From Sinorhizobium alkalisoli (lineage in GTDB: Bacteria; Pseudomonadota; Alphaproteobacteria; Rhizobiales; Rhizobiaceae), in contig NZ_CP034910.1 of the NCBI RefSeq assembly GCF_008932245.1, positions 806,001 through 870,000 of the forward strand: a DNA stretch of 64,000 nt. Direction: 5' to 3'. Each line of letters begins with the position of its first letter. Within the stretch, counting starts at the first letter, position 1. This document shows, piece by piece, positions 12,767-25,810 of this stretch. The notes under the pieces were generated by a model. It saw only the letters and a list, made by a program, of their open reading frames with translations. It searched no databases and was not told the origin of the DNA. The position numbers were made by a program, and so were the translations under genes.

Positions 12767-13852
12767 ATGAACAAGCACGCCACCATGAACATGCCCGTAG
12801 TTCAGGACGAGGAGATATCCTCCAGGGTTGCGGCGCGACCGCCGCGAACCCTCAATCTGGCGCTGCAGGGAGGTGGCGCGCACGGCGCTTTCACCTGGGG
12901 CGTGCTCGACCGGCTGCTCGACGAGCCGAGCCTTTCCTTCGAAGGCGTCGTCGCAACGAGCGCCGGAGCCATGAATGCCGCGGTCCTTGCCTATGGGCTG
13001 GCAGAGGGAGGGCGCAGCGGCGCGCAGAAGGCGCTTGCCAATTTCTGGCGCCGTATCAGCCATGCAGCCGCCTTCAGCCCGCTTCAGCCGAGCTTTCTCG
13101 ATCGCATGACGGGCTCGAAATCATTGGAGCACTCGCCAGCCTTCGTCATCTTCGACATGGTGACGCGACTGCTGTCGCCCTACCAGTTCAATCCGTTGAA
13201 CTACAATCCGCTGCGTCGGGTGCTTGAGCAGTCCATCGAGCTCGATGCGATCCGCATGGCGCGTTGTCCGGTCAAGCTCAATATCTGCGCAACCAATGTG
13301 CGTACCGGCAAGGTCAAGGTGTTTTCGAATGACGAGATTTCGATCGATGCCGTCATGGCATCAGCCTGTCTGCCCTTCCTGTTCCAGGCCGTCGAGATCG
13401 ACGGCGAGGCCTATTGGGACGGCGGCTATATGGGGAATCCCGCGATCTTTCCGTTGATCTATAGCTGCGACACGCCGGACGTGCTGGTGGTCCATATCAA
13501 TCCCCTGGAGCGAACGGAACTGCCGCGAACGGCAGGGGAGATCCTCAACAGGATCAACGAAATCAGCTTCAACTCCTCGCTGCTCCGCGAGATGCGGGCG
13601 ATTGCCTTCGTGACGCAACTGATCGATTCCAAGGCCGGCGATGGCCTCGATCTGAAGCGCATCTTCGTGCACGGCATTTCCGACGACGAGACGATGAGAA
13701 ACTTAAGCGTCTCGAGCAAGCTCAATGCCGAATGGGGCGCCCTCGTCGACCTGCGCGACCGCGGCCGAGAATGCGCCGAGGCGTGGCTCGAGGAAAACTA
13801 TGACGCGATCGGCAATCGCTCCAGCGTCGACATCAGCACGCGCTATCTCTAG
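12767..13852 (+). CDS. Patatin-like phospholipase / depolymerase
   Basis: A 361-residue serine acyl hydrolase with the patatin fold. Seen: oxyanion loop LQGGGAHGAF (33-42), nucleophile Ser65 in ATSAG, and the second catalytic residue Asp218 in DGGYMGN. The first Gly of the usual GxSxG elbow is Ala here. There is no signal peptide, so it acts inside the cell. Coupled to 3-hydroxybutyrate dehydrogenase, it may release hydroxyacyl units from polyhydroxybutyrate granules or from lipids; this is inference from context. The ATG at 12767 follows GAGAGGAAGAGAG. Open frame continues far upstream but overlaps the dehydrogenase and has no start signal. Confidence 0.85.
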   Translation: MNKHATMNMPVVQDEEISSRVAARPPRTLNLALQGGGAHGAFTWGVLDRLLDEPSLSFEGVVATSAGAMNAAVLAYGLAEGGRSGAQKALANFWRRISHAAAFSPLQPSFLDRMTGSKSLEHSPAFVIFDMVTRLLSPYQFNPLNYNPLRRVLEQSIELDAIRMARCPVKLNICATNVRTGKVKVFSNDEISIDAVMASACLPFLFQAVEIDGEAYWDGGYMGNPAIFPLIYSCDTPDVLVVHINPLERTELPRTAGEILNRINEISFNSSLLREMRAIAFVTQLIDSKAGDGLDLKRIFVHGISDDETMRNLSVSSKLNAEWGALVDLRDRGRECAEAWLEENYDAIGNRSSVDISTRYL

Positions 13853-13947
13853 AGCGCGTTTCGATCTGACTGGATCAGATCGGCGCTCTAACGCTTGAGG
13901 CATGATCTTATCGATCCTCGTTTCACTCCGGTCGGATCATGCTCTAA
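13851..13947. repeat. RIME-type element (two palindromes)
   Basis: Two inverted repeats in tandem: AGAGCGC (13851-13857) with a matching GCGCTCT, enclosing GATCTGA/TCAGATC; and GCATGATC with GATCATGC ending near 13942. This is the layout of the rhizobial intergenic mosaic element RIME1. It begins within the stop codon region of the patatin gene and sits between convergent genes, where it can act as a bidirectional terminator. Confidence 0.8.
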
Positions 13948-13959
13948 CTTAAGCTAAAG

Positions 13960-15687
13960 CTAGTTGCTCCAAGCGGAATCATAGCTCCATGCCTCATACG
14001 TTTCGATACGGCCCCCGTCGGTGGACTTCACTTCAAGCGAGGTCAGGTCTGTGATCTTATAGGTACGGCGCGTCCCGCAGACCGCGCCCCCATTGGCGAA
14101 GACCTCGACGACGCCGCGATCGAAGAACAACGTCAACCGTTCGAGCGTCAGCGGCGCTGAGCGGTACTCGATGTCACCATTATCCTCCGCCACGGCCAGC
14201 TCAAGCCGGCGGGCGCTGTGAGCCAACCTAAAGCTCTCCCCGTCGCTGCCCCGCGCGATGATCTGAACTCCATCCAGATCGCCTGCCAAAGACAACTCGA
14301 TGGGACGCCCCGGTTCGCATGCGAATTGAAAAGGTGCAGACTGGGCAAGAGTGCGGGCGCGCAGGCGCTGGCAACCCTTCTCCGGCATCATTGTCAAATT
14401 GCGTTGGGCGTCGAGGCCGAGCACGCGCGGGAGCGACAGCTCCCCGCTATACGGCGAACCTCCTGGCTTGCGGAATTCCCAATTGAAGAGCCAGGCAAAA
14501 GCGATCTGGCGGTCCTTTGCCAGGAAGCTCTGCATCGCGTAAAAATCCGTGCCGAAATCCAACTCCTGCAAAGTGGGAGTCGCGGGCATGAAGCGGTCGC
14601 CCTCGAACGTGCCGACCTGTGCGTAAAGCAGGTTATGACGGCCGGTTTCCGGCTCAGTGTATCCTACAAAGCCCATCACCAGCACATGATGACAATCGAG
14701 CTCGAAAAAATCCGGGCACTCCACGCAGCGTGCGCCGTGCCGGCGAAAATGCTCGGGAGCGCGATAGAGGACGGACAAGAATTTCCAGTCCTCGCCGTCC
14801 TCGGACCCATAGAGCAGGACGGCCGGATCACCGTCGATCGCCGCGCCGAGGACCATCCGAAATGTGCCGCGGGCCGCATCGTACCACACCTTGGGGTCAC
14901 GGAAGTCGTGGGCACTACCATCGGGACCGTTGACAAGCACCAACTTATCGGCATCCGGACGCAGGAGATCGGCCGATGGCAGCACTCGCTTCTGCACCTC
15001 CTTGTAGTCCTTGAACAGGTCATAGGCCGGCAGTCGTTCTGTGTAGTAGAAGCTGAGCTTGCCCTCGGGGCCAACGAAGGCACTTCCCGAGAAGGCGCCG
15101 CCGGTGGCGCCTAGCGACCAAAGATTCTGTTCCGGATGCAGGAAGATCGGCAGATGGATCCAACGGTAGAGATCATCGCTGACGGCATGGCCCCAGTGCA
15201 TGGGTCCCCATTCGGATTCAACGGGGTGGAACTGGTAAAAGAGGTGATAGCGGCCGTCGACGAAACACAGCCCGTTCGGATCGTTCATCCAGGCCTGAAA
15301 CGGCGAGAATCTGAGCTGCGGGCGATTTGCATCGCTCTCGTACCACTCCGGCCAGGATGTCCTCGGTCGAGCGATGACGCGGCCATCGCGCAACTCCAAG
15401 AAAGTCACGCCTTTCTCAGCAACGTCGTCCGGGTTGAAGCTGTAAAGCAGTGGAATTTCAATGGCGCCATGGTCCCATTCTAGCGTGAGCGGACCGGCCG
15501 CATAATGAGTATAGGAATAGAATTGAAAATAGGGCGGCAGCCGCGCGATCCGGTAAACGACCCGATCGCCGGCACGCAGAACGAAGGCATCGGCGTCATC
15601 CTCCGGAGCTGATTTTCCAGGCTTCTTCCGAGCCCAGATCTCGAACCGCACGCCGCGCTCAGCATCCAATTGCGCCCTGTTCTTCAT
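13960..15687 (-). CDS. GH32 beta-fructosidase, intracellular
   Basis: Hydrolyses beta-fructosidic bonds (sucrose, inulo-oligosaccharides, levan-type chains). The 575-residue protein has the GH32 five-bladed propeller from about 125 to 430, with nucleophile Asp136 in WMNDPNG, transition-state Asp264 in FRDP and acid/base Glu323 in ECPD, then a C-terminal beta-sandwich to the end. About 125 residues precede the propeller, more than in typical invertases, and no signal peptide is seen, so it acts in the cytoplasm. It is the last gene of the divergent sugar operon, 57 bases after the GH91 gene. In context it would split inulobiose or similar products into fructose. Exact specificity cannot be read from sequence. 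Confidence 0.9.
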   Translation of the reverse strand: MKNRAQLDAERGVRFEIWARKKPGKSAPEDDADAFVLRAGDRVVYRIARLPPYFQFYSYTHYAAGPLTLEWDHGAIEIPLLYSFNPDDVAEKGVTFLELRDGRVIARPRTSWPEWYESDANRPQLRFSPFQAWMNDPNGLCFVDGRYHLFYQFHPVESEWGPMHWGHAVSDDLYRWIHLPIFLHPEQNLWSLGATGGAFSGSAFVGPEGKLSFYYTERLPAYDLFKDYKEVQKRVLPSADLLRPDADKLVLVNGPDGSAHDFRDPKVWYDAARGTFRMVLGAAIDGDPAVLLYGSEDGEDWKFLSVLYRAPEHFRRHGARCVECPDFFELDCHHVLVMGFVGYTEPETGRHNLLYAQVGTFEGDRFMPATPTLQELDFGTDFYAMQSFLAKDRQIAFAWLFNWEFRKPGGSPYSGELSLPRVLGLDAQRNLTMMPEKGCQRLRARTLAQSAPFQFACEPGRPIELSLAGDLDGVQIIARGSDGESFRLAHSARRLELAVAEDNGDIEYRSAPLTLERLTLFFDRGVVEVFANGGAVCGTRRTYKITDLTSLEVKSTDGGRIETYEAWSYDSAWSN

Positions 15688-15744
15688 TCGATGGCCTTAT
15701 TGATGATTTTTTCCGACACTGAATTTCGAGAGTCAGCGTTTGAT

Positions 15745-17139
15745 TTATATTGAAAGTTCCCCATTTTTCCCGGGAACTGGGGTGCCCCTAAATGCATTCT
15801 TTGTTTTGTCCATCTCAACCTGTTCGTCATTCCCTGAATCTAGGACTATATTACGTACAGAGCCTTTTTGAACTAGTACAGACGTTACTTCAAGCTCCTT
15901 CAAATTGCTAATTGAAAGCAACGCTCCCACTTGTGTTGAAAAACAGGCACTGTTTGGTGCATCAATGGTGTGCGATATTTCGGTTGTGGCCACGATATGA
16001 TTATTGGCTATGTAATTGCCGATACCGGAGACAACGTTGATTATCACCGGCTTTACGCCGGCAGGCTTGACATATTCGGTATCTATTGTTTCCGAGATGT
16101 GGTTCGCAATTATCGAATTGTTGCTGCCGTCGATTTGCAAAAGTCCGAACAGATCATCCAAGCCGTTATCGTACTTCTGCATCGGTGCCCACGGCTCGCG
16201 ATCTCGCAAAAAGTGATTTGAGGAAACCAAATTTTCGCAACAGTTGGCAGCAAAAACCAACATTCCGGGATAAAACGAATGGAATCTATTTCCTGTGAGC
16301 GAGGAACGCACCACGCCGGAAAAATAGACACTGCTGGCACCTCGAGGGAATACGTTGTTTGAGGATACTAGAATGCCTCCGTAATTTTCGGCATAAATGG
16401 AATGTCCTCTATATCCGGCTCCGACAAAATTATTCGCAATTCTTGAGGCCTGCCCCATACCTTTCAGTTCGATACAGTTCCCGCACTCGGCAATGAAGTT
16501 GTTGTCTATCGCCAGCGCATCTGCATCATAAACAATAACTCCATGCTCCAGATAGATGAGACCCATTCCCGTTATTCGGAATGAGTCATTGGCGCTACCT
16601 ACATATATTCCCGTTTTGCCATTCTTGTATGTATTTTCCGGATCATTTTGCTCCGAACCATCACTAATGAAGTGCAAGCCATCGATGCAAAAGTCGGCAA
16701 ACTCCACAGAGCTTATGCGAGGATTCCCAGTTCGCTTGACATAAAATGCAGCTCCGGCAGCCTCACCGTCGGCGGCATCTGGAGAAATGTCCACAAGCAT
16801 GCGACTTCCGCCCGGCCACACTTCGTGCCAGCGTGCCGCCTCGTGTGCGGGTGTGTTGAAACGGATGCTCGAAGACGTAAAACCGTGTCCGGAGCCCACA
16901 ATTTTCAGATAGCTCACGTCTATAACGACTTGAGTGGCAAGACGGTAATCGCCCGGCGGTACATAGATTACTGCTCCAGGTTTCCCGCCGTCATTTTGAT
17001 CGGAAACAGTTTGCCTGCTTTTAATATCCGCAATGATGCTATTGATGACCGCTCCAATATCCTCATAGGGATTACCCACCGGATACTTTGTCACGTCGTA
17101 ACAGTTTTCGCTAAGTATTGTTAATGTCTTCTCGGACAT
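15745..17139 (-). CDS. GH91 enzyme: difructose dianhydride hydrolase or inulin fructotransferase
   Basis: A 464-residue right-handed beta-helix protein matching, from memory, the inulin fructotransferase / difructose-anhydride (DFA) hydrolase family. Seen: DIGAVINSIIADIKSRQ (27-43), YVPPGDYRLATQVVIDVSYL (59-78), the acidic pair Asp207 and Glu218 in ADAL...IAEC with the family's 11-residue spacing, and FYPGML. Known members either cleave inulin into DFA outside the cell or hydrolyse DFA III to inulobiose. No signal peptide is present and the gene sits behind an ABC importer, which favours the intracellular hydrolase. Base composition is much more AT-rich than its neighbours (23 of 60 G+C in 15841-15900). 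A GGAGTAAG box precedes the ATG. Confidence 0.85.
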   Translation of the reverse strand: MSEKTLTILSENCYDVTKYPVGNPYEDIGAVINSIIADIKSRQTVSDQNDGGKPGAVIYVPPGDYRLATQVVIDVSYLKIVGSGHGFTSSSIRFNTPAHEAARWHEVWPGGSRMLVDISPDAADGEAAGAAFYVKRTGNPRISSVEFADFCIDGLHFISDGSEQNDPENTYKNGKTGIYVGSANDSFRITGMGLIYLEHGVIVYDADALAIDNNFIAECGNCIELKGMGQASRIANNFVGAGYRGHSIYAENYGGILVSSNNVFPRGASSVYFSGVVRSSLTGNRFHSFYPGMLVFAANCCENLVSSNHFLRDREPWAPMQKYDNGLDDLFGLLQIDGSNNSIIANHISETIDTEYVKPAGVKPVIINVVSGIGNYIANNHIVATTEISHTIDAPNSACFSTQVGALLSISNLKELEVTSVLVQKGSVRNIVLDSGNDEQVEMDKTKNAFRGTPVPGKNGELSI

Positions 17140-17317
17140 TTCTTACTCCAGAGCGGTAGTAGACTGATGTTCTTGATCGGCTTGTTACTTGCAAACTGAC
17201 CGGGTAACGCGTTCAACCAGCTCTCCCACTGGGTTTCCTAGCTGGAGACCCGAAGGAGCCACAGGCGATGGGTGGCGACACAGGGCTCGTCACTCTTGTT
17301 TTCTCCCGGCTATTCCA

Positions 17318-18460
17318 TCACCAGATGCTGGTGCGGGTGACCGGTTCAAAGAAGTGAAGTTCTTCGGCATCGACAGCGACGCGCGCGATGTCACCTGCGC
17401 GTACTGTGCTCTTCGGAGAAAAACGGGCTACAGCAGCTCTTTCGTCGCCAATATCGGCGACGGCGTCCGAGTCGCCAGCATCCACCCAAGGTGCGCCGAT
17501 ATTCAGATGCACCATGGATTCAGAGCCTAACGCCTCAACAAGAGTGACTGGGGCCGAGATCTCGGCCGAAGAAGGGCGGATTGCCGCGTCGTTCATGTGC
17601 TCGGGCCGGACTCCGACAATGACCTGACGGTTAGACGCACCGTTGAGAGAGGGGCGATATTCGAAGACCCGCTCAGGGACTTCGAAACTGTTGCTGCCCA
17701 GCGTGAGGGTCCTTCCATTCAGAACGGCCTCGTACAAGTTCATCGAGGGGGATCCGATAAAGGCGGCGACAAAGACATTGCCAGGGCGTTTGTACAGGTT
17801 TTGCGGTGTATCGACTTGCTGCAGCACGCCGCCTTTCATGACAGCTACGCGGTCGCCCATCGTCATCGCCTCGACCTGGTCGTGTGTCACGTAAACCGTG
17901 GTGACATTCAGTTTTCTTTGGAGGCTGGCGATCTCGGCGCGCATCTGCACGCGCAGCTTGGCATCCAGGTTCGACAACGGTTCATCCATGAGGAAGGCCG
18001 CCGGTTTGCGGACGATCGCTCGTCCCATGGCGACACGCTGTCGCTGACCTCCTGAAAGGAGTGCCGGCCTACGGTCGAGCAAAGTCGTCAATTCAAGGGT
18101 GCGTGCGGCTTCGTCTACGCGGCTCGCGACTTCGGCCTTCGGCAGCCCGGCCATCTGCAGGGGAAAGGCGATATTTTCGCGCACTGTCTTGTGGGGATAA
18201 AGCGCATAGGACTGGAACACCATGGCGATGTCGCGATCCTTGGGATCGACATCGTTAACTAACCTGCCACCAATCCTGAGTTCACCGCTAGTAATGCTCT
18301 CCAGGCCAGCGATCATCCTGAGCGCCGTTGACTTTCCACATCCTGACGGGCCGACGAAAACCATGAACTCGCCATCCCTGATGTCGAAGCTCAGATCGTG
18401 CAGAGCGTGAAAGCTGTTTCCGTAGACCTTGTTGATATTGCACAGCTCTATGGCGGACAT
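17318..18460 (-). CDS. Sugar ABC importer ATP-binding subunit (MsmK/UgpC type)
   Basis: A 380-residue ATPase with Walker [10 protein letters not shown] (37-45), signature LSGGQRQR, Walker B AAFLMDEP and a C-terminal TOBE-like region after about residue 240. Such subunits energise CUT1 sugar importers. It follows the second permease gene by 13 bases. The GH91 gene follows after 178 bases, the largest gap in this operon, so an internal promoter there is possible. The partner permeases and the downstream glycosidases point to a fructose-containing oligosaccharide as substrate. Confidence 0.9.
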   Translation of the reverse strand: MSAIELCNINKVYGNSFHALHDLSFDIRDGEFMVFVGPSGCGKSTALRMIAGLESITSGELRIGGRLVNDVDPKDRDIAMVFQSYALYPHKTVRENIAFPLQMAGLPKAEVASRVDEAARTLELTTLLDRRPALLSGGQRQRVAMGRAIVRKPAAFLMDEPLSNLDAKLRVQMRAEIASLQRKLNVTTVYVTHDQVEAMTMGDRVAVMKGGVLQQVDTPQNLYKRPGNVFVAAFIGSPSMNLYEAVLNGRTLTLGSNSFEVPERVFEYRPSLNGASNRQVIVGVRPEHMNDAAIRPSSAEISAPVTLVEALGSESMVHLNIGAPWVDAGDSDAVADIGDERAAVARFSPKSTVRAGDIARVAVDAEELHFFEPVTRTSIW

Positions 18461-18473
18461 GCTTCTGCCTCCC

Positions 18474-19310
18474 TCATCCCTTTACAGCGCCGAATGTCAG
18501 GCCGCCGACGATCTGTTTTTGAAGTGCGAGCGTTACGACGATTACGGGAAGCGAATAGAGCACCGCGGCTGCGGTCATCGCTCCCCAGGCAAGCCCGTAG
18601 ACCGAGTTATATTCGGCGATGACGATCGGAGCCGTTTTTGTAGCCTCCGAAGTCAGCAGCAACGCGTAGAGGAACTCGTTCCAACTCGTGATGAAGGTGA
18701 AGAGCGCAGTCACTGCGATCCCACCGATCATGACCGGAAGGACAATCTTCCGGAATGCCTGGAAACGTGTGCAGCCATCCATGCGTGCTGCTTCTTCGAG
18801 TTCCTTCGGCACGCCTTCGAAGAAGGCGGACATGAGCAACAACGCCAGCGGGACGGCAGCCGAGGTGTGGGCGAGAACCAGACCCGGAATCGTATCGAGC
18901 AGTCCCAGAGACTTTAGTAGCTGAAACAGTGGCACACCGAGGGACACCGACGGCACCATGCGCGTGACCAGCGCAAACAGCAGGAACAGGGTGGTGATCC
19001 TACGCCGGTACTGCGTTGCGACGTAGGCTGCGGGGACTGCCACCGCCAGCGACAGTACGGTTGTGAGCACCGCCACCGTGAGCGAGCTTGCGAACGCCTT
19101 CGGCAGAGCCGACGATTGCAGCACTTCGCGAAAGTTTTCGAGCGAGACCACGGCAGGCAGGAAGCTCGGCGGAATCTGCTGGACATCCGCCGCCGGCTTG
19201 ATCGAGGTCATGAGCAGGTAGACGTATGGCAGCGCATAGGACAGAACGAGCACGAGGGCTGCCGCGTTGACCAGGATGCCATTGATATTGAAGCGGCGTG
19301 CCCTACGCAT
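18474..19310 (-). CDS. Sugar ABC importer permease (MalG type)
   Basis: A 278-residue inner-membrane permease with six helices; the coupling loop EEAARMDGCTRFQAFRKIVLP lies near residues 171-191, fitting the EAA motif. The start overlaps the preceding permease gene by eight bases. With the neighbouring permease it should form the channel of a CUT1 importer. The short N-terminal cytoplasmic tail (RRARRFNIN) precedes helix 1. Confidence 0.9.
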   Translation of the reverse strand: MRRARRFNINGILVNAAALVLVLSYALPYVYLLMTSIKPAADVQQIPPSFLPAVVSLENFREVLQSSALPKAFASSLTVAVLTTVLSLAVAVPAAYVATQYRRRITTLFLLFALVTRMVPSVSLGVPLFQLLKSLGLLDTIPGLVLAHTSAAVPLALLLMSAFFEGVPKELEEAARMDGCTRFQAFRKIVLPVMIGGIAVTALFTFITSWNEFLYALLLTSEATKTAPIVIAEYNSVYGLAWGAMTAAAVLYSLPVIVVTLALQKQIVGGLTFGAVKG

Positions 19311-20184
19311 GAGCCGGCCTCCATATCTTCCAATATGCGGCTGCAGCGAGAAGCATCATGACGATCAGGAACAGGGCCGCGGATGCCGATGCCTCGCCAA
19401 GATCGCCGAACCGAACCATGCGCTGATAGATGTTCATCGAGAACACCTCCGATGCGTGATTGGGGCCCCCTTGCGTCTGTATCCAGATGAGGTCGAAGGT
19501 CTTGGCCGCATCTACAGCGCGGACGATGACAATGACGGCGATAACCGGACGCATCAGAGGCAAGGTGACGTGCCAAAACCGATTGAACGCATTCGCGCCA
19601 TCGATCCGGGCAGCTTCGAGCAAGTCTTTCGGAATGTTCGTCAATCCGGCGTAGGACACGAGCGCGACAAAGGAGGTCGTCAGCCAGATATCGGCGAAGG
19701 AAACGGAATAGATGACGATGTCCTCGTCGGACAGCCAGGCAATCGCATCGGGGTCTGTGATAATGCCAAGATGAACGAGCCCATAATTGAGAATGCCAAT
19801 GTTGCCGACGAGCAGGAAGCGCCACAGCAGGCCGGCGACGATCGGCGGCACCATCAGCGGCAGGGTGAAGACCGTGCGATGCCAGCGCGATCGGCCAGGA
19901 AGTGCCGAAAACAAGAGAGCGGCGCAAAACCCGAAGGCAAACTCGAAGAACAGGGCAAAGACCGAATATTGAATCGTTCTCAATGCGCTTTCGGCGACGC
20001 GCTTGGAGGTTAGCGCGTCGATATAGTTCTTGAGCCCGACCCACTCCCTTATGTGGGGGGTGATGGTGTCGACCTTGAAAAAGGAATCAAACACCAGGAG
20101 CCCCACCGGGTATGCGACCAGCAACCCCAGGATGGCGAACGCCGGCGCAAGCATGCAGAGCACAAATCGGTCTTCACCCGACAT
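19303..20184 (-). CDS. Sugar ABC importer permease (MalF type)
   Basis: A 293-residue permease with six helices and the EAA loop EAARIDGANAFNRFWHVTLP near residues 188-207. The ATG at 20184 has GGAGAC upstream. It is separated from the binding-protein gene by 65 bases containing a stem-loop, and overlaps the next permease gene. Paired with the MalG-type subunit. Confidence 0.9.
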   Translation of the reverse strand: MSGEDRFVLCMLAPAFAILGLLVAYPVGLLVFDSFFKVDTITPHIREWVGLKNYIDALTSKRVAESALRTIQYSVFALFFEFAFGFCAALLFSALPGRSRWHRTVFTLPLMVPPIVAGLLWRFLLVGNIGILNYGLVHLGIITDPDAIAWLSDEDIVIYSVSFADIWLTTSFVALVSYAGLTNIPKDLLEAARIDGANAFNRFWHVTLPLMRPVIAVIVIVRAVDAAKTFDLIWIQTQGGPNHASEVFSMNIYQRMVRFGDLGEASASAALFLIVMMLLAAAAYWKIWRPAHA

Positions 20185-20208
20185 GGCTGTCTCCGAAAGC
20201 TGATGATA

Positions 20209-20231
20209 GGCGGAGGATTTTCTCCTCCGCC
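20209..20231. promoter_or_regulatory. Intercistronic stem-loop after the sugar binding-protein gene
   Basis: Nine-base perfect arms GGCGGAGGA (20209-20217) and TCCTCCGCC (20223-20231) around a five-base loop, between the binding-protein stop and the first permease start. Read on the minus strand there is no T-run after it, so partial attenuation or mRNA protection is more likely than full termination. Confidence 0.6.
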
Positions 20232-20249
20232 GGCGATGCGGATATAGAG

Positions 20250-21509
20250 TTAGTTGAGGATGTCCTCGATCGTTTCCTTGGCATCCGTCAGCACCTCGCC
20301 GACATCCGCCTTACAGGTCAGGGCCTGTTGCACGGCGGGAAGGACAGCTTCATCGACGATTTCCTGATATTTTTCGTTCATCGGCCGCCCTTGGGTCGCC
20401 GGCGCACTCAACGTCTCGAGCAGCGGCGTGAAATGCTCATATCCCGGCTTGCCGGAATAGCTGCGATAGGCGGAGTTCGTCGCGGCGAGGCCGAGTGGCG
20501 CTTCGATGCCCAATGCATTGTTGGCGATCGCAAAGGCTATGAATTTCTTGGCTGCGTCCTTGTGCTGCGACGTCGAAGGAACAACATTGTACCAGGGCCC
20601 CGGAATGGCGGCGATTCCGGCATCGCCCGCCAGCATCGGTGCAACGCTGACCTTGCCGCTGACCTTGGAATCCGCAGGCGTCATCTTGTAGGCGTGGGCC
20701 CAGAATTTCATCATGGCTGTCTTGCCCTGATAGAACAGGTTCTGAGCCTCTCCCCAACCGATCTCATTCACATTCGCCGGCACCGATTGATCGGTGCAGC
20801 GCGGGGCGATGTAGAATTCGAGCGCCTTCTTGTGCGCTTCGTTGTCGATGATGACTTTGCCATCCTTGTCGAGGATCACACCGGGTGAACCCGCCTGAAG
20901 CACATGCGCCATCCACTCTTCGGAAAAGGTGCCGATGGTGTCAGTGCCCCAGAAGTCGGTTTTGCCGTCGCCGTCCGTGTCGCGGGTGAAGAACTTTGCC
21001 ATGTCGCGCCATTGTTGCCAGGTCTTCGGCGGAGCAAGGGGATAGCCATACTTGTCCTGGAACGCCTTCTGCTCCTCCGGTTTTTCAAAGAGGTCCTTGC
21101 GAAAAAAAACGATCTCCGCATTCGCCCACGCGGGCATTCCGATCATTTTGCCTCCAACCTCGGCGTCGGCGAGCAAAGCTGGTGGCAGATCCTTGCGAAC
21201 CGCGTCGGTGAAAAGGGGTGAGAGATCCTCGACATGGCCCGCGAATTTGGCATTCCAGACAACATCGATCGTAACAACATCGAACGCCGATGAACCGGAG
21301 GCGATCTCGGCCGAGAACTTGTCAAATACGCCCTGGTAGGGGACGACCGTGAACTTCACCTCAATGCCGGTCTCGGCGGTGAACTTATCGGCTACGGCCT
21401 TCTGCAGCATCTCGCCGCCGCCTTCGACCAGGATATTGATGGTTTCGGCATTCGCCGGCGCCGCCATGAAGATGAGCGCAAGCGCGCTGGCTGAAAGCAA
21501 ATTCTTCAT
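20250..21509 (-). CDS. Sugar ABC importer periplasmic binding protein
   Basis: A 419-residue extracellular solute-binding protein of family 1. The ATG at 21509 is chosen because GAGAGGAGG precedes it and a signal peptide follows (cleavage near ANA-ET, residue 22). The mature protein has the typical order INILVEGGGEMLQKAVADKF, DVVTIDVVWNAKFA, and GYPLAPPKTWQQWRDMAKFF. A DTDGDGKTD stretch near residue 170 looks like a calcium-binding loop. It is first in the six-gene operon under the divergent LacI regulator. The ligand is inferred to be a fructan-derived sugar, possibly difructose dianhydride. Confidence 0.9.
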   Translation of the reverse strand: MKNLLSASALALIFMAAPANAETINILVEGGGEMLQKAVADKFTAETGIEVKFTVVPYQGVFDKFSAEIASGSSAFDVVTIDVVWNAKFAGHVEDLSPLFTDAVRKDLPPALLADAEVGGKMIGMPAWANAEIVFFRKDLFEKPEEQKAFQDKYGYPLAPPKTWQQWRDMAKFFTRDTDGDGKTDFWGTDTIGTFSEEWMAHVLQAGSPGVILDKDGKVIIDNEAHKKALEFYIAPRCTDQSVPANVNEIGWGEAQNLFYQGKTAMMKFWAHAYKMTPADSKVSGKVSVAPMLAGDAGIAAIPGPWYNVVPSTSQHKDAAKKFIAFAIANNALGIEAPLGLAATNSAYRSYSGKPGYEHFTPLLETLSAPATQGRPMNEKYQEIVDEAVLPAVQQALTCKADVGEVLTDAKETIEDILN

Positions 21510-21577
21510 AGAGATCCTCCTCTCTTTCAGTGAGGCTCTCACTCCAGCCTCCGATGAAGGCCACCATAATCGGCGCA

Positions 21578-21634
21578 TGACGACGTTGTCAACGCCGATT
21601 GTCGACGTTGTCATGAAAGTTGTCGACGTTGTCA
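21578..21634. promoter_or_regulatory. Three tandem operator-like dyads (candidate LacI-family operators)
   Basis: Three 14-base sites fit TGnCnACGTnGnCA: TGACGACGTTGTCA at 21578-21591 and TGTCGACGTTGTCA at 21600-21613 and 21621-21634. Their centres are 22 and 21 bases apart, two helical turns, so bound dimers would lie on one face of the DNA. They sit between the divergent binding-protein and LacI genes, 69 and 43 bases from the respective starts. A central CG dyad is typical of LacI-family operators. Confidence 0.7.
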
Positions 21635-21676
21635 TTCCCTTGGTGTAAAACTGCTTTCGGATAGAAGGATTCCCAT

Positions 21677-22696
21677 ATGGTCAGCATCGTCAGTGTCGCT
21701 AAAGCGGCAGGGGTCTCGAACAAGACCGTGTCCCGTGTAATCAACGGCGAACCGCATGTGACCGAGGACACGCGAGAAAGAGTGGAAAAGGCCATTCGGG
21801 ATCTCGGCTACATTCCCAACATGGCCGCGCGCCAAATACGCTCAAGCCGCTCCAACACGTTCGGGATCATCACGGACTATGTTTCCACGACGCCCTATTC
21901 GGTGGATATCGTGCGCGGGATCCAGGATTGGGCCAATACGCATGGAAAAAGCATCCTGATGGCAAACTCCGGCGGGTTACCGGGAAGGGAGGCGGAAATC
22001 TGGAAGATGTTCCAGTCCCACCGTATCGACGGGGTGCTTTATGTGACGATGTACCATCGCGTCGTGGATCCCGAGGCCGGCGATGTGAGCATACCGACAG
22101 TAATGATCAACTGCCGGCCGCAGACGAGCGAACTCTTGCCATCCATCGAGCCTGACGACTTCCAGGGCGCCCGGGACCTCACCCGATATTTGCTTGAACG
22201 GGGACATCGAAGGATAGGCTACATCAGGCTCAACCCGATTCTGCTCGGCGCAGAACTGCGCCTCGATGCCTTCCGCCGCACTGCAAAGGAATTCGGCCTT
22301 GCGGAGAGCGACCTCTCCATTCGTCTTGGAATGGAAGGTCCGGTCGGAGCGGAGGAAAATTACGTGTTTGCGGCAGCCTCCGAAATACTGCAGCAAAAGG
22401 ATCGTCCGACCGCGATCATGAGCGGCAATGATGAAATGGCGATCCAGATCTATATTGCAGCTTTGACGTTGGGACTGAGAATCCCGCAAGACGTCAGCAT
22501 TGTTGGCTTTGACGATTTCAGAACGGTATCGTTGTCGCTGAAGCCCGAACTGACCACCGCGGCATTGCCGTACTATGATCTCGGTTTCCAGGGTGCCGAT
22601 TGGTTGAACAACGTCATTTCTGAAGAAAAGGTGCGCGCGAGTCGTCGTGTCATCTCGTGCAAACTTGTCGAGCGTACATCTGTGTGTGCTCTGTAA
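21677..22696 (+). CDS. LacI-family transcriptional regulator of the divergent sugar operon
   Basis: A 339-residue repressor. Residues 3-50 form the LacI helix-turn-helix and hinge (VSVAKAAGVSNKTVSRVINGEPHVTEDTRERV), followed by a periplasmic-binding-like effector domain (from about residue 58) with the usual GIITD..., RIGYIRL and SIVGFDDF segments. The start at 21677 leaves 167 bases of divergent promoter space carrying three operator-like dyads. It should sense the imported sugar or its breakdown product. Downstream lie only an insertion-sequence remnant and a terminator. Confidence 0.92.
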   Translation: MVSIVSVAKAAGVSNKTVSRVINGEPHVTEDTRERVEKAIRDLGYIPNMAARQIRSSRSNTFGIITDYVSTTPYSVDIVRGIQDWANTHGKSILMANSGGLPGREAEIWKMFQSHRIDGVLYVTMYHRVVDPEAGDVSIPTVMINCRPQTSELLPSIEPDDFQGARDLTRYLLERGHRRIGYIRLNPILLGAELRLDAFRRTAKEFGLAESDLSIRLGMEGPVGAEENYVFAAASEILQQKDRPTAIMSGNDEMAIQIYIAALTLGLRIPQDVSIVGFDDFRTVSLSLKPELTTAALPYYDLGFQGADWLNNVISEEKVRASRRVISCKLVERTSVCAL

Positions 22697-22752
22697 AACT
22701 GATGGAGCGATGCCGCCCGCGATCAATCCAGACGACTAGATTCGGGTCTTCC

Positions 22753-22993
22753 TCAATCTGCGTAGTGATGAGAGTTGTTGAGTGGCAGCAAGCGTGCTCC
22801 GTGGAGCTCCGGGCCTGCTCTGCCATTCACGTTTGATCGTCTTCAGGCGGATCATCTGGCCTTCTGCCTGGCCGTTGCTCCAGGGGAGTTCGATGGCGTT
22901 GCGGACGGCGCCGATGTCACGGCGCAGGACCCGCGCGAACCGGACGATCGGCGTGAGCCCGGAGCTGACGGCATCCTCGATCCAAGCGTCTAA
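22753..22993 (-). pseudogene. ISL3-family transposase C-terminal remnant, frameshifted
   Basis: Reading the minus strand gives DAWIEDAVSSGLTPIVRFAR, then LPWSNGQAEGQMIRLKTIKR, the conserved C-terminal block of ISL3-type transposases. Just after KTIKRE the frame breaks; the adjacent frame continues GRAGPELHGARLLPLNNSHH and stops at a TGA at 22753. Only about 80 codons of a transposase of roughly 400-550 residues remain, so it is inactive debris. No terminal repeats were recognised. It lies between lacI and the bufferin operon. Confidence 0.75.
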
Positions 22994-23027
22994 CTAACCC
23001 GTTCCATGCCCCTCCCACGGCAGCCTC

Positions 23028-23051
23028 GCCCCCCGATCCGGGGGGCTTTTT
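23028..23051 (+). terminator. Rho-independent terminator
   Basis: Stem GCCCCCC / GGGGGGC with a five-base loop (23028-23046) followed by TTTTT, oriented for + strand transcription. It would stop read-through from lacI before the bufferin operon. The rest of the 22994-23210 stretch shows no gene; it should hold the bufferin promoter, but no consensus I trust was found. Confidence 0.75.
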
Positions 23052-23210
23052 CGTAGGCAGGGTCCGCGCGTGGCCGCCTCTCTCAACGGATAGGCCGGAC
23101 CTATCGAAACGATGCCCGAACAGCATTTCAAAGAGCGCGAGCCGTCTGCGAAGCTTGTCTGCATCAGGCCGATACCCGGTCTGAACAATGTCAGATCCAG
23201 GAGATGTTTC

Positions 23211-23480
23211 ATGATCAACAATCGCACGCTCATCGGCTCGGCGCTTGCGGCCATCGCATCGCTGTCGGCCTCCACGGTATCCGCCGGGCCGGCTGCCCAG
23301 CCCGAGTTCTCGTTCGAGAAATGTTACGGCGTCGTCAAGGCCGGGCAGAACGATTGCCAGACCGCAACCCATTCCTGTGCGGGCACCTCGACGATGGACG
23401 ATCAGGCCGATGCCTGGATCTACCTGCCGGCCGGCACCTGCTCAAAGATCGCCGGCGGCAACAACGCGCCGAAGGCCTGA
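23211..23480 (+). CDS. bufA: Bufferin-type RiPP precursor (DUF2282)
   Basis: An 89-residue precursor with a signal peptide (cleavage near VSA-GP, residue 25) and a cysteine-bearing core: Cys38 (EKCYG), Cys49 (NDC), Cys56 (HSCAG) and Cys77 (GTCSK), with the family signature KAGQNDC...[12 protein letters not shown]2282 proteins have recently been described as bufferins: periplasmic copper-binding peptides whose cysteines are modified by a DUF692 enzyme before export. The DUF692 and DUF2063 genes follow directly, supporting this. The ATG 23211 has AGGAGAT upstream. Modification and metal are inferred from family knowledge. Confidence 0.88.
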
Positions 23481-23521
23481 CGGCCGGCGTCTTCAGCAAG
23501 ACTCTAGAAGGGAGTAGACCG

Positions 23522-24550
23522 ATGCCCAAGACGTTTCCAACCCACCCGGTGCCGTGCGCTGCGGGCATCGGCCTCCGTTCCATTCACATCGCAGAAGTGC
23601 TCGCCCGCAGACCGTCTGCGGGGTGGCTCGAGGTGCATGCCGAAAACTACATGGGTCAGTCGGCGGCCGTCGACGCGCTGGAAAAGCTGCGGGAGGTCTA
23701 TCCGCTATCGGTGCACGGCGTCGGCCTGTCGCTCGGAAGTGCATCAGGGCTTGACCTGGACCATCTCGAGCGGCTGCGGCTTGTCTGTCAGCGCTTCCAG
23801 CCCGCGCTCGTCTCCGAGCACCTCGCCTGGAGCGTCGCCGACGGCGCTTATCTCAACGATCTCCTGCCGCTTCGCTATGACGAGGAGGCCCTTTCCGTCG
23901 TCTCTCGCAACATCGGGCTGCTGCAGGAAACGCTGAAATGGCGGGTCTATATCGAAAATCTGTCCGCCTATCTCTCCTTTGAAGGCTCCATCATGAGCGA
24001 GGCCGAGTTCCTGGCCGAGCTCGTCCGCCGCACGGGCTGCGGATTGCTGCTCGATGTCAACAATGTCTATGTCTCGGCGAACAATCTCGACTTCGATGCT
24101 GCGGCATTTATCGATGCTCTGCCGGCCGATGCGGTCGGTGAGATTCATCTCGCCGGCCATGCGGTGAACGAGGCCGATGGCGACGTCATTCTCATCGACG
24201 ATCACGGCTCGCGCGTACCACCCGCCGTCTGGTCGCTCTATGCCCATGCCATCCGCAGGATCGGGCCCCGGCCGACGCTGATCGAATGGGATACGGACGT
24301 GCCGCCGCTCGACGTGCTGCTCGGCGAAGCCATGTGGGCGGACATGCTTGCGCGCAGCATCGCCTTCGACGCCCGCCCGGAGGAGCGAAAAGCCGCGCCC
24401 GACAGCCGTTTCGCAGCGATGACGCTGCCTCGCCGCGACGACGCGACAGGCATCCGCTTTCCGGCACTTGCCGCGATCGCAGCCCTGCAGGCGGCCTGCC
24501 GCGGCTGCGGCGCTGAGGAATGCAGGAGGGCTCGCCATGTCCTCCATTGA
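23522..24550 (+). CDS. bufB: DUF692 multinuclear iron oxidative enzyme (MNIO), bufferin-modifying
   Basis: A 342-residue TIM-barrel enzyme of the MNIO family (MbnB relatives), expected to oxidise precursor cysteines using a di- or tri-iron centre. Seen: GIGLRS near residue 16, WLEVHAENYMG (36-46), LSVHGVGLSLGS, LVSEHLAWS, IENLSAYLSFEGS, LLLDVNNVYVSANN and GEIHLAGH, which supply the His/Glu/Asp/Asn ligands of the family. The ATG at 23522 follows GAAGGGAG; an open frame upstream overlaps bufA and is ignored. The stop lies inside the next gene. A 41-base gap with a weak GTCTT/AAGAC hairpin separates it from bufA. Confidence 0.9.
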   Translation: MPKTFPTHPVPCAAGIGLRSIHIAEVLARRPSAGWLEVHAENYMGQSAAVDALEKLREVYPLSVHGVGLSLGSASGLDLDHLERLRLVCQRFQPALVSEHLAWSVADGAYLNDLLPLRYDEEALSVVSRNIGLLQETLKWRVYIENLSAYLSFEGSIMSEAEFLAELVRRTGCGLLLDVNNVYVSANNLDFDAAAFIDALPADAVGEIHLAGHAVNEADGDVILIDDHGSRVPPAVWSLYAHAIRRIGPRPTLIEWDTDVPPLDVLLGEAMWADMLARSIAFDARPEERKAAPDSRFAAMTLPRRDDATGIRFPALAAIAALQAACRGCGAEECRRARHVLH

Positions 24551-25340
24551 GACGATGCAGAGCATTGTCGCGCGCGCGGTGCTCGCGGCCGAACCCGCCG
24601 ATGTGCTTCCGCTGCTCGCGCCGGGACGTTTCGATCCCGCAAGGCGACTCGCCATCTATCGCAACAATACGCGCGCTTCGTTGATCGCAACTCTGAAGGT
24701 CGTGTTTCCAGTGACGGTGCGGCTCATCGATGAACGCTGCTTCAATTACGTCGCGGGTCGCTTCATCCGAAGCAACCCGCCGAGGGAACCGCGGCTATCG
24801 CGTTACGGGGCAGATTTTCCGGCCTTTCTCGCTGGTTTCGAGGCAACCGCCGGCATGCCCTTTGTCGCCGAGACCGCGCGGCTGGAGTGGTTGATCGCCG
24901 AGGCGCTCGACGCACCGCTCCAGCGGCCATGCCGGCTGATCGAGCTCTATGACGGGCTTTCGAACAGCTCGATCGGGTTGACCCTGCAGCCGTCGCTGCG
25001 GCTTCTCCTGTGCCGCTGGCCGGCCTTGAACATATGGGCTTCGCACCAGCCTGGCGCGGATGTCGACCGGCTCGGTGAACTCCAGCGCAAAGCGGAGCGG
25101 ATCGCGCTCTGGCGACACGGCGAAACCATCCGCTTCATGCGGCTCGACCCCGCGAATTTCGCTTTCTGGCGCGCGCTGGTGCGCGGGCTTGGACTGGAGG
25201 CCGCGGTCTCTCGCGCCTGCCGCCATGCGCCGTCCTTCGAAATCGCCCGCGCGCTGACGGGTCTCTTCGTCGGCGAGCTCGTCACCGCCGTCAACCATCA
25301 TCTGAAGGCATTTTCCAAAGAGGAGGAGAGAGTGTCATGA
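24537..25340 (+). CDS. bufC: DUF2063 partner protein of the MNIO enzyme
   Basis: A 267-residue protein with the DUF2063 N-terminal domain: FDPARRLAIYRNNTRASLIATLKVVFPVTVRLI (residues 31-63) followed by FIRSNPPREPRLSRYGADFPAFL. It is the usual partner of DUF692 enzymes, analogous to MbnC, thought to present the precursor to the enzyme. It overlaps bufB by 14 bases and its stop overlaps the next start (ATGA), so the operon is translationally coupled. No signal peptide. Confidence 0.88.
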   Translation: MSSIETMQSIVARAVLAAEPADVLPLLAPGRFDPARRLAIYRNNTRASLIATLKVVFPVTVRLIDERCFNYVAGRFIRSNPPREPRLSRYGADFPAFLAGFEATAGMPFVAETARLEWLIAEALDAPLQRPCRLIELYDGLSNSSIGLTLQPSLRLLLCRWPALNIWASHQPGADVDRLGELQRKAERIALWRHGETIRFMRLDPANFAFWRALVRGLGLEAAVSRACRHAPSFEIARALTGLFVGELVTAVNHHLKAFSKEEERVS

Positions 25341-25810
25341 CTACAATGCGCATCACCGGGGCCGGTGGCTCCAGATCCATCGTCAAGCTCCACAACCTTT
25401 TTGCGGAGCGGGCGACCGCCCTCCCACTGTCGATTGTTCAGCTGGCCGCCCGCATCGCCGTCGCCGAGGTGTTCTGGCAATCCGCCCAGACGAAACTCGC
25501 CTCCTGGCCGGTAACGCTTCAGCTCTTCGCCTTCGAATATCGCGTGCCGCTGATCGATCCCGGTCTTGCGGCGGTCCTTGCGACGGCGGCGGAACTGTCG
25601 GGAGCCGTGATGGTGGCGCTCGGCGTGCTCTCGCGGCTGGCGGCTCTGATGCTGCTCGGCGTCGTAGCCACAATCCAGATCTTCGTCTATCCCGGCCATT
25701 GGGCCGAGCATCTGATGTGGGCGAGCCTTCTCCTGCTCATTCTGTCGCGTGGGGCCGGGTTCCTCTCCGTCGACCACCTCGTCGCCCGCCGTATTCGTGC
25801 CGGGAGATGA
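25337..25810 (+). CDS. DoxX-family membrane protein
   Basis: A 157-residue inner-membrane protein with four predicted helices (about 28-48, 73-95, 98-115, 118-138), matching DoxX/DoxD-type proteins. DoxX proteins commonly close DUF2282-DUF692-DUF2063 operons, including the metal-stress operons of Caulobacter, but their biochemical role is unsettled (quinone-linked redox is often proposed). The start overlaps the previous stop by four bases. Confidence 0.85.
   Translation: MTTMRITGAGGSRSIVKLHNLFAERATALPLSIVQLAARIAVAEVFWQSAQTKLASWPVTLQLFAFEYRVPLIDPGLAAVLATAAELSGAVMVALGVLSRLAALMLLGVVATIQIFVYPGHWAEHLMWASLLLLILSRGAGFLSVDHLVARRIRAGR

What the first reader, a model, noticed from the sequence alone, without database searches (positions are those of the whole stretch)
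13960..22696. A rhizobial operon apparently dedicated to difructose dianhydride (or inulin fragment) uptake and breakdown
Seen: LacI gene divergent from binding protein, two permeases, ATPase, a GH91 protein and a GH32 protein, all close-set on one strand. The GH91 protein keeps the family's acidic pair (Asp207, Glu218, spacing 11) and, like the GH32 protein, has no signal peptide. Known: GH91 covers inulin fructotransferases and DFA III hydrolases. Inference: the cell imports a cyclic fructose disaccharide made by other soil bacteria from plant inulin, opens it to inulobiose with GH91 and splits that with GH32. This would be a cross-feeding route in the rhizosphere of inulin-storing plants.
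Basis: partly seen in the sequence, partly recalled or inferred. Interest (0 to 1): 0.85.

Follow-up and report, generated by a model that had tools for sequence, protein, structure and literature searches.

The report
Rhizobial operon eating cyclic difructose
A rhizobium-type soil bacterium carries a compact, self-regulated gene set that very probably imports a ring-shaped double fructose (DFA III), opens it and splits it to fructose; the route is known from other bacteria but seems undescribed in rhizobia, where a sister operon and exchangeable parts go with it.

Summary
In detail: a divergent LacI gene and a close-set operon (binding protein, two permeases, ATPase, GH91, GH32) lie where stated. 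By sequence the GH91 protein is a DFA III hydrolase: 62% identity to solved DFA-IIIase 5zks against 49% to two fructotransferases, the 30-residue lid in 74 of 74 DFA-IIIase-clade rows and 0 of 41 fructotransferase rows, and tree placement with 5zks. The same gene set is published for Blautia (PMC11538131), so the kind is known. Added here: three operator-like palindromes, with no exact copy elsewhere in the genome; binding protein and GH91 in the same 9 of 394 family genomes; a sister operon in the same genome built on GH172, the DFA I hydrolase family; and, against strict dedication, three relatives without GH91 whose 76%-identical binding protein serves an operon with another GH172 in the GH91 slot. 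The system looks modular: one importer and regulator frame, exchangeable ring-openers. Activity, specificity and the ecological story are untested. Novelty: new member of a known kind.

The parts
13960..15687 (-). GH32 beta-fructofuranosidase, 575 aa, no signal peptide seen; predicted to split inulobiose to fructose
   Evidence: PF00251 E 2.2e-68, PF08244 E 8.1e-9; WMNDPNG at 133, FRDP at 262, ECPDF at 323 (that these hold the GH32 catalytic residues is recalled); falls in a GH32 clade shared with GH172-linked genes
15745..17139 (-). GH91 DFA III hydrolase, 464 aa, Asp207/Glu218, lid at about residues 385-415 with Cys399
   Evidence: phmmer 619 bits to DFA-IIIase 5zks against 361, 351 and 277 bits to fructotransferases; tree; lid
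17318..18460 (-). MalK/UgpC-type ABC ATPase
   Evidence: NF008653 463.5 bits, cut-off 432; PF17912 OB_MalK
18474..19310 (-). ABC permease
   Evidence: PF00528 E 8e-23
19303..20184 (-). ABC permease
   Evidence: PF00528 E 1.6e-14
20250..21509 (-). Periplasmic sugar-binding protein, 419 aa with signal-peptide-like N-terminus (start re-assigned from 21635)
   Evidence: PF01547 E 1.2e-34; hydrophobic N-terminus; co-occurrence with GH91
21578..21591 (.). Operator-like palindrome TGACGACGTTGTCA; overlaps a TTGACA-like hexamer that starts at 21592 on the - strand
21600..21613 (.). Operator-like palindrome TGTCGACGTTGTCA
21621..21634 (.). Operator-like palindrome TGTCGACGTTGTCA
21677..22696 (+). LacI-family regulator, divergent, 339 aa; predicted local repressor
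   Evidence: PF00356 and PF13377; 60% identity or more beside GH91 in 29 of 30 rhizobial loci

Best explanation
The operon is a catabolic unit for difructose dianhydride III (DFA III). Shown by sequence: the genes and their order, the GH91 subfamily with its lid and catalytic pair, a GH32 without signal peptide, a sugar ABC importer and three operator-like palindromes. Inferred: DFA III released from inulin by other microbes, or formed by heat, is bound in the periplasm and imported intact. GH91 opens the ring to inulobiose; this step is reversible in a characterised relative and would be pulled forward because GH32 splits inulobiose to two fructose. LacI would sit on the three palindromes, one of which overlaps a likely -35 box of the transporter promoter, and let go when the sugar or a product is present.
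For: GH91 is 62.2% identical over 444 positions to DFA-IIIase 5zks and 49.1% and 48.9% to fructotransferases 2inu and 9j4i. It groups with 5zks in a 74-row clade (SH-aLRT 100), while both solved fructotransferases sit in the other 41 rows. The lid, whose removal turns a DFA-IIIase into a fructotransferase (as stated in PMC11538131), is in 74 of 74 against 0 of 41 rows. The binding protein (E <= 1e-100) and GH91 occur in the same 9 of 394 Rhizobiaceae genomes. Near-matches to the operator-like site are in 39 of 39 LacI/binding-protein intergenic regions, three of them in 35 of 39. The same genome has a GH172 DFA I-type operon with a related GH32; GH172 at E <= 1e-100 occurs in 3 of 394 genomes, all three among the 9 with GH91. 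In Blautia four strains with the same kind of cluster degraded DFA III and three of them grew on it; the fourth cannot use fructose (PMC11538131).
Against: No assay here. Binding-protein specificity cannot be read from sequence; its solved relatives are distant (best E 1.8e-27). Three Sinorhizobium-type genomes keep a 76%-identical binding protein and three operator-like sites without GH91, so the frame is not exclusive to DFA III. A characterised DFA-IIIase also acts on GF3, GF4 and inulin in vitro (PMC11538131). The one characterised DFA-IIIase in the tree lies in the sister clade and does not bracket the rhizobial one (quick tree, midpoint root, long-branch warnings).
Confidence: 0.85

Rival explanations
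1. Inulin-fragment operon: short inulin-type fructo-oligosaccharides are imported; GH91 cuts them and GH32 finishes. DFA III would be a by-product, not the main substrate.
For: A characterised DFA-IIIase converts GF3, GF4 and inulin (PMC11538131). GH32 alone can handle oligofructans (general knowledge).
Against: GH32 alone would suffice for oligofructans, and this genome has another ABC/GH32 cluster beside an RTX-type GH32. In three relatives the GH91 slot holds GH172, a family known for alpha-fructofuranosyl and alpha-arabinofuranosyl substrates (PMC8605356), which fits cyclic alpha-linked sugars better than linear beta-linked inulin. GH172 and GH91 co-occur.
Confidence: 0.08
2. Broad difructose-dianhydride importer: the transporter takes several isomers (DFA I, DFA III, others) and GH91 covers only the DFA III part. 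This overlaps with the best explanation and differs in transporter specificity.
For: A close transporter serves operons with GH172 in the GH91 slot. GH91 and GH172 lie within 10 kb of each other in 5 stretches seen: L005, L006, L030, L021 and L091.
Against: The own-genome GH172 operon has its own binding protein, permeases, ATPase and LacI, so isomers seem to be split between transporters.
Confidence: 0.15
3. GH91 is an intracellular inulin fructotransferase or a NosD-type protein, as database names say ('NosD domain-containing protein', 'inulin fructotransferase (DFA-I-forming)').
For: Names given by sources for close homologues; PF05048 NosD scores 31.3 bits, above its cut-off of 23.6.
Against: Tree, lid and identity. 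The NosD maturation family model scores 18 bits against a cut-off of 300; the NosD match is best explained by the shared beta-helix.
Confidence: 0.02

Closest known systems
DFA III gene cluster of Blautia species (GH91 + GH32 + ABC transporter), PMC11538131
   Same: Same three functional parts; GH91 with lid; proposed import and degradation through inulobiose
   Different: Blautia itself was not aligned here. In 13 other Bacillota GH91 loci the binding proteins, found in 11, are only 35-41% identical and a MalK-type ATPase match is in 2; the rhizobial unit has a divergent LacI with three operator-like sites
DFA I operon of Bifidobacterium dentium (LacI, GH32, GH172, ABC), PMC8605356
   Same: Same logic: import, conversion between the dianhydride and inulobiose, GH32; close in make-up to the sister operon in this genome
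   Different: Ring-opener is GH172 (retaining), unrelated to GH91
Arthrobacter DFA-IIIases (PMC4640833; solved enzyme 5zks)
   Same: Same enzyme subfamily, same Asp207/Glu218 (PMC4640833), lid and lid cysteine (5zks)
   Different: A. aurescens also has the extracellular fructotransferase that makes DFA III (PMC4640833); in this genome only one GH91 gene was found
Inulin fructotransferases (2inu, 9j4i, 8hsn)
   Same: GH91, same catalytic pair
   Different: No lid, separate clade, 49% identity for 2inu and 9j4i; 8hsn compared only by score (277 bits)

Membership tests
GH91, DFA-IIIase subfamily | Catalytic Asp/Glu pair, spacing 11 | tested here: met
   Asp207 and Glu218; both in 115 of 115 rows of the two clades, so not specific to the subfamily
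GH91, DFA-IIIase subfamily | C-terminal lid insertion that separates hydrolase from fructotransferase | tested here: met
   The stretch aligned to window residues 380-422 has 38-48 residues in 73 of 74 clade rows (99 in one) and 13 in 41 of 41 fructotransferase rows
GH91, DFA-IIIase subfamily | Tree placement with characterised DFA-IIIase, apart from fructotransferases | tested here: met
   74-row clade with 5zks, SH-aLRT 100; 2inu and 9j4i in the 41-row clade
GH91, DFA-IIIase subfamily | Hydrolysis of DFA III to inulobiose | not testable with these tools
   needs an assay
GH91, DFA-IIIase subfamily | No signal peptide | tested here: met
   simple hydropathy only
Inulin fructotransferase (DFA-forming) | Lid absent, clade of 2inu and 9j4i | tested here: not met
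DFA III degradation cluster (Blautia type) | GH91 DFA-IIIase, GH32 and ABC transporter together | tested here: met
DFA III degradation cluster (Blautia type) | Growth on DFA III | not testable with these tools
   no culture data
Sugar ABC importer (CUT1 type, name recalled) with LacI control | Solute-binding protein, two permeases, MalK-type ATPase | tested here: met
Sugar ABC importer (CUT1 type, name recalled) with LacI control | LacI binds palindromic operators at the promoter | tested here: inconclusive
   conserved palindromes found; binding itself not testable here

The most novel reading that the evidence does not exclude
Rhizobia run a modular fructose-dianhydride ('caramel sugar') catabolism: one LacI/ABC/GH32 frame with exchangeable ring-openers from two unrelated families. 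GH91 serves DFA III (window), GH172a serves DFA I (sister operon in the same genome, next door in other rhizobia), and a second GH172 sits in the GH91 slot in three relatives. That second GH172 keeps both catalytic Glu but lacks the +1-subsite Glu and Lys of the DFA I enzyme, and may open a further, unidentified alpha-fructofuranosyl ring sugar. The GH32 of the window operon is of the type found in most of the GH172 operons seen in rhizobia, which points to exchange of the inulobiose-splitting part between the routes.
Probability: 0.55. Interest if true: 0.6.

Novelty: new member of a known kind. Interest (0 to 1): 0.45.

Why it matters
Cyclic difructoses are mostly studied as food-chemistry products and gut prebiotics. 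Paired import and ring-opening operons for what look like two isomers, on rhizobial plasmids and large replicons, suggest that these sugars are a real carbon source in soil. The swap of two unrelated ring-openers in one operon frame gives a direct test of transporter specificity and predicts a third substrate. It also bears on database names: many GH91 relatives from rhizobia are filed as 'NosD domain-containing protein' or as DFA-I-forming enzymes.

Tried and rejected
One search used a wrong Pfam accession (DUF3737) and says nothing about GH91. One search failed because one of the coordinates that I gave held stop codons; corrected coordinates were scanned. Rfam search of 13000-23500 gave no match. 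Fructotransferase 8hsn could not be put in the tree because its sequence was not printed; only its score is used. (second-type GH172, E <= 1e-130) rang in 0 of 379 genomes; that sample holds no known positive, so it only says that the type is not common in it. Three near-identical Sinorhizobium terangae contigs (L001-L003) were not taken as three copies: a complete S. terangae replicon shows one place. From the GH91 tree I dropped L002 and L003 (near-copies of L001) and L012, L026 and L067 (reading from the first matched base met a stop within five codons, not looked into), 2 of 9 family matches hold one in-frame stop, also not looked into. The 39 unsolved fructotransferase rows are every third protein of 380-480 aa from one search seeded with 2inu, so they are chosen for closeness to it. 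The limits 1e-100 and 1e-150 are mine, and only the best 3 or 4 candidates per genome were scored there; the 76%-identical binding proteins of G394, G396 and G402 pass 1e-100, but those genomes were not in that sample. The strict 'dedicated transporter' reading was rejected because of those three genomes. Structure prediction was not run: a solved relative at 62% identity made it redundant. Fructokinase and further fructose metabolism were not looked for.

Full report
WHAT IS THERE. The binding protein most likely starts at 21509, not 21635, because a signal-peptide-like sequence begins there. The window lies at C2:806001-870000 of a 6.13 Mb genome in three contigs; C2 is 1.98 Mb. The nearest named plasmid-collection DNA is a 2.09 Mb Sinorhizobium terangae replicon, 93.0% identical over 88% of a 10 kb query; the species itself was not determined.

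WHAT THE GH91 ENZYME IS. The closest solved sequence is DFA-IIIase 5zks (619 bits, residues 10-457); fructotransferases 9j4i, 2inu and 8hsn score 361, 351 and 277 bits. Identity to 5zks is 62.2% over 444 positions, to 2inu 49.1% and to 9j4i 48.9% over 395. In a 115-row tree the window protein sits in a 74-row clade with 5zks (SH-aLRT 100); both solved fructotransferases are in the other 41 rows (quick method, midpoint root, some long branches). The catalytic pair Asp207/Glu218 is in all 115 rows, so it cannot tell the two activities apart. The lid can: the stretch aligned to window residues 380-422 is 38-48 residues long in 73 of 74 rows (99 in one) and 13 in 41 of 41. PMC11538131 (text parts 1-3 of 6 read) states that removing the lid turns a DFA-IIIase into a fructotransferase. 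Window Cys399 matches the lid cysteine mutated in 5zl5 and is kept in 69 of 74 rows. PMC4640833 (parts 1, 3 and 4 of 6 read) reports that D207 and E218 mutants of the Arthrobacter aurescens enzyme are inactive and that the enzyme has no signal peptide.

SURROUNDINGS IN OTHER GENOMES. Of 72 GH91 loci from genome contigs (the best 80 hits were kept), I count 30 as rhizobial; 29 of 30 have the binding protein and 29 of 30 the LacI at 60% identity or more within about 10 kb, and 30 of 30 some GH32 (L007 lacks the first two). In 12 other alphaproteobacteria the figures are 11, 11 and 10. Twelve gammaproteobacteria have no match to these ABC genes; all 12 have a relative of the L033 carrier (MFS_2 family) instead, and 3 of 12 a GH32. 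Of 13 Bacillota 11 have a distant binding protein and 11 a GH32; of 5 Actinomycetota 5 and 3. So GH91 often keeps company with importers and GH32 across phyla, and the importer type changes. These are presence counts within the fetched stretch, not proof of co-transcription. In the plasmid collection GH91 relatives are in 85 of 72,556 records, 70 of them Rhizobium.

CO-OCCURRENCE. In 394 Rhizobiaceae genomes GH91 occurs in 9, the binding protein at E <= 1e-100 in the same 9, and GH32 at E <= 1e-150 in the same 9. Against strict dedication: among 20 relatives, three Sinorhizobium-type genomes (G394, G396, G402) have a binding protein 76% identical but no GH91 (1 of the 11 congeners searched, G397, has GH91). 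Their operons keep LacI (67-68%), permeases (79-80%), ATPase (75-76%) and three palindromes with 21-22 spacing (one of them altered at one more base in G402), with a GH172 gene directly behind the ATPase, where the window has GH91. A 75%-identical GH32 follows in G402 only; none is in the fetched stretches of the other two, where a LacI 92% identical to that of the sister operon lies next door. The other listed binding-protein matches in these 20 genomes are 33% identical or less, apart from one 62-residue match at 40%; that list was cut.

THE SISTER OPERON. The window's genome carries at C2:981.7-990.4 kb a LacI, two permeases, a binding protein, a GH172 protein, an ATPase and a divergent GH32. 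The GH172 is 57.7% identical to the Bifidobacterium dentium DFA I synthase/hydrolase 7v1v and keeps all eight active-site residues probed (residues from PMC8605356, passages read). B. dentium has the same gene set (PMC8605356, same passages). GH172 at E <= 1e-100 occurs in 3 of 394 genomes, all among the 9 with GH91; ignoring kinship the chance is 8e-6, but two of the three are congeners. GH172 at 50% identity or more lies within 10 kb of GH91 in 4 of the 72 loci (L005, L006, L030, L021) and in R. phaseoli pRphaR620a, where the neighbouring gene named 'NosD domain-containing protein' is 86% identical to the window GH91. Rhizobium sp. T136, T1473 and T1470 have GH91 and GH172 on different plasmids. 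GH172 operons also occur without GH91 nearby (L093, L094).

GH32 EXCHANGE. In a 62-row GH32 tree (a few rows are the same gene twice) the window GH32 falls in a 16-row clade (100/100). Half of it is GH32 from GH91 operons like the window's, the other half GH32 from GH172 operons, including the own-genome sister (74% identical). GH32 from the other rhizobial and alphaproteobacterial GH91 stretches forms a different clade (29 rows). One result does not fit neatly: the GH32 beside GH172 in Rhizobium sp. T136 (L092, 48% identical to the window's) belongs to that second clade. The simplest reading is that the window lineage took over a GH32 of the kind used in GH172 operons, which makes sense if both routes end in inulobiose.

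REGULATION. Three palindromes (TGWCRACGTYGTCA) start at 21578, 21600 and 21621, spacing 22 and 21. The slightly wider pattern TGWCRACGTYGWCA, made from these sites, occurs in the whole genome at these three places only; the reversed control pattern occurs 0 times and 0.26 matches are expected by base composition, so the news is three in one promoter and no exact site elsewhere. Near-matches (3 mismatches or fewer) are in 39 of 39 LacI/binding-protein intergenic regions, three of them in 35 of 39; the 39 include the window and three near-identical S. terangae contigs. Shuffled windows give 1.35 such matches per 64 kb. A TTGACA-like hexamer at 21592 (-) runs into the first site. LacI binding is inferred, not shown.

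SECOND-TYPE GH172. The three GH172 proteins behind the ATPase in G394, G396 and G402 keep both catalytic Glu, Asp292, Trp267 and Trp298, have Phe for Tyr187, and lack Glu85 and Lys147, the +1 residues that matter for inulobiose in the DFA I enzyme (PMC8605356 table passage). They may act on another alpha-fructofuranosyl or alpha-arabinofuranosyl compound; the GH32 behind one of them favours a fructoside.

WHAT IS NOT SHOWN. No activity, binding or growth. The source of DFA III for this organism is unknown: only one GH91 gene was found in the genome, so DFA III would have to come from others or from heat chemistry. The genome also has an ABC/GH32 cluster beside a 1342-residue GH32 ORF with RTX repeats, so it may attack fructans itself.

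LITERATURE. Searches of the open library for difructose with Rhizobium, inulin fructotransferase with rhizobi-, GH91 with rhizobi-, and GH172 with rhizobi- gave 1, 1, 1 and 0 papers. From the listings (not opened) none is about a rhizobial DFA route. Most subscription papers are not held, so this is no proof of absence.

VERDICT. A well-supported new member of a known kind of catabolic cluster, with an unexpected sister operon and evidence for exchange of ring-openers and GH32 among such operons.

Noticed in passing
L080:708-9365 (own genome C2:981.7-990.4 kb): Sister operon with a GH172 protein 57.7% identical to the DFA I hydrolase, own LacI and ABC importer, and a GH32 74% identical to the window's.
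   Followed up: yes
L084:12414-13538, L085:3291-4415, L086:2947-4071: A second type of GH172 sits in the GH91 slot of an otherwise homologous LacI/ABC operon with three operator-like sites; the DFA I +1-subsite residues are missing.
   Followed up: partly
L079:9552-13580 (own genome C2:1880.6-1884.6 kb): GH32 ORF of 1342 aa with RTX calcium-binding repeats near the C-terminus; the GH32N match is split in two by a long insert, and the N-terminal part looks like a decayed partial copy of GH32 (by eye only).
   Followed up: partly
L091 (R. phaseoli pRphaR620a): GH172 and GH91 operons side by side on a 356 kb plasmid; the GH91 gene is named 'NosD domain-containing protein', a misleading label also seen for many homologues.
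   Followed up: yes
L087:4707-11287 (S. meliloti pSymB) and L090:4697-10179: Another LacI/ABC/GH172 operon with no GH32 in the stretch; its GH172 lacks the DFA I +1-subsite residues. Substrate unknown.
   Followed up: no
L093 (Arthrobacter plasmid) and L094 (Chimaeribacter plasmid): GH172 with ABC importer, GH32 and a sugar kinase in one, with a GPH-type symporter in the other: the GH172 route too changes importer type between lineages.
   Followed up: no
window 23112-25810: DUF2282 small protein, MbnB/TglH-type enzyme, DUF2063 and DoxX in a row: looks like a metal-responsive RiPP (bufferin-type, name recalled) operon next to the finding.
   Followed up: partly
L001, L002, L003: Three contigs of one Sinorhizobium terangae draft carry nearly the same DFA locus; a complete S. 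terangae replicon has one, so probably assembly redundancy.
   Followed up: partly
L007: Rhizobium sullae isolate: GH91, GH32 and ATPase are kept, but LacI, binding protein and this operon's permeases are not beside them; other ABC-like genes lie upstream.
   Followed up: no
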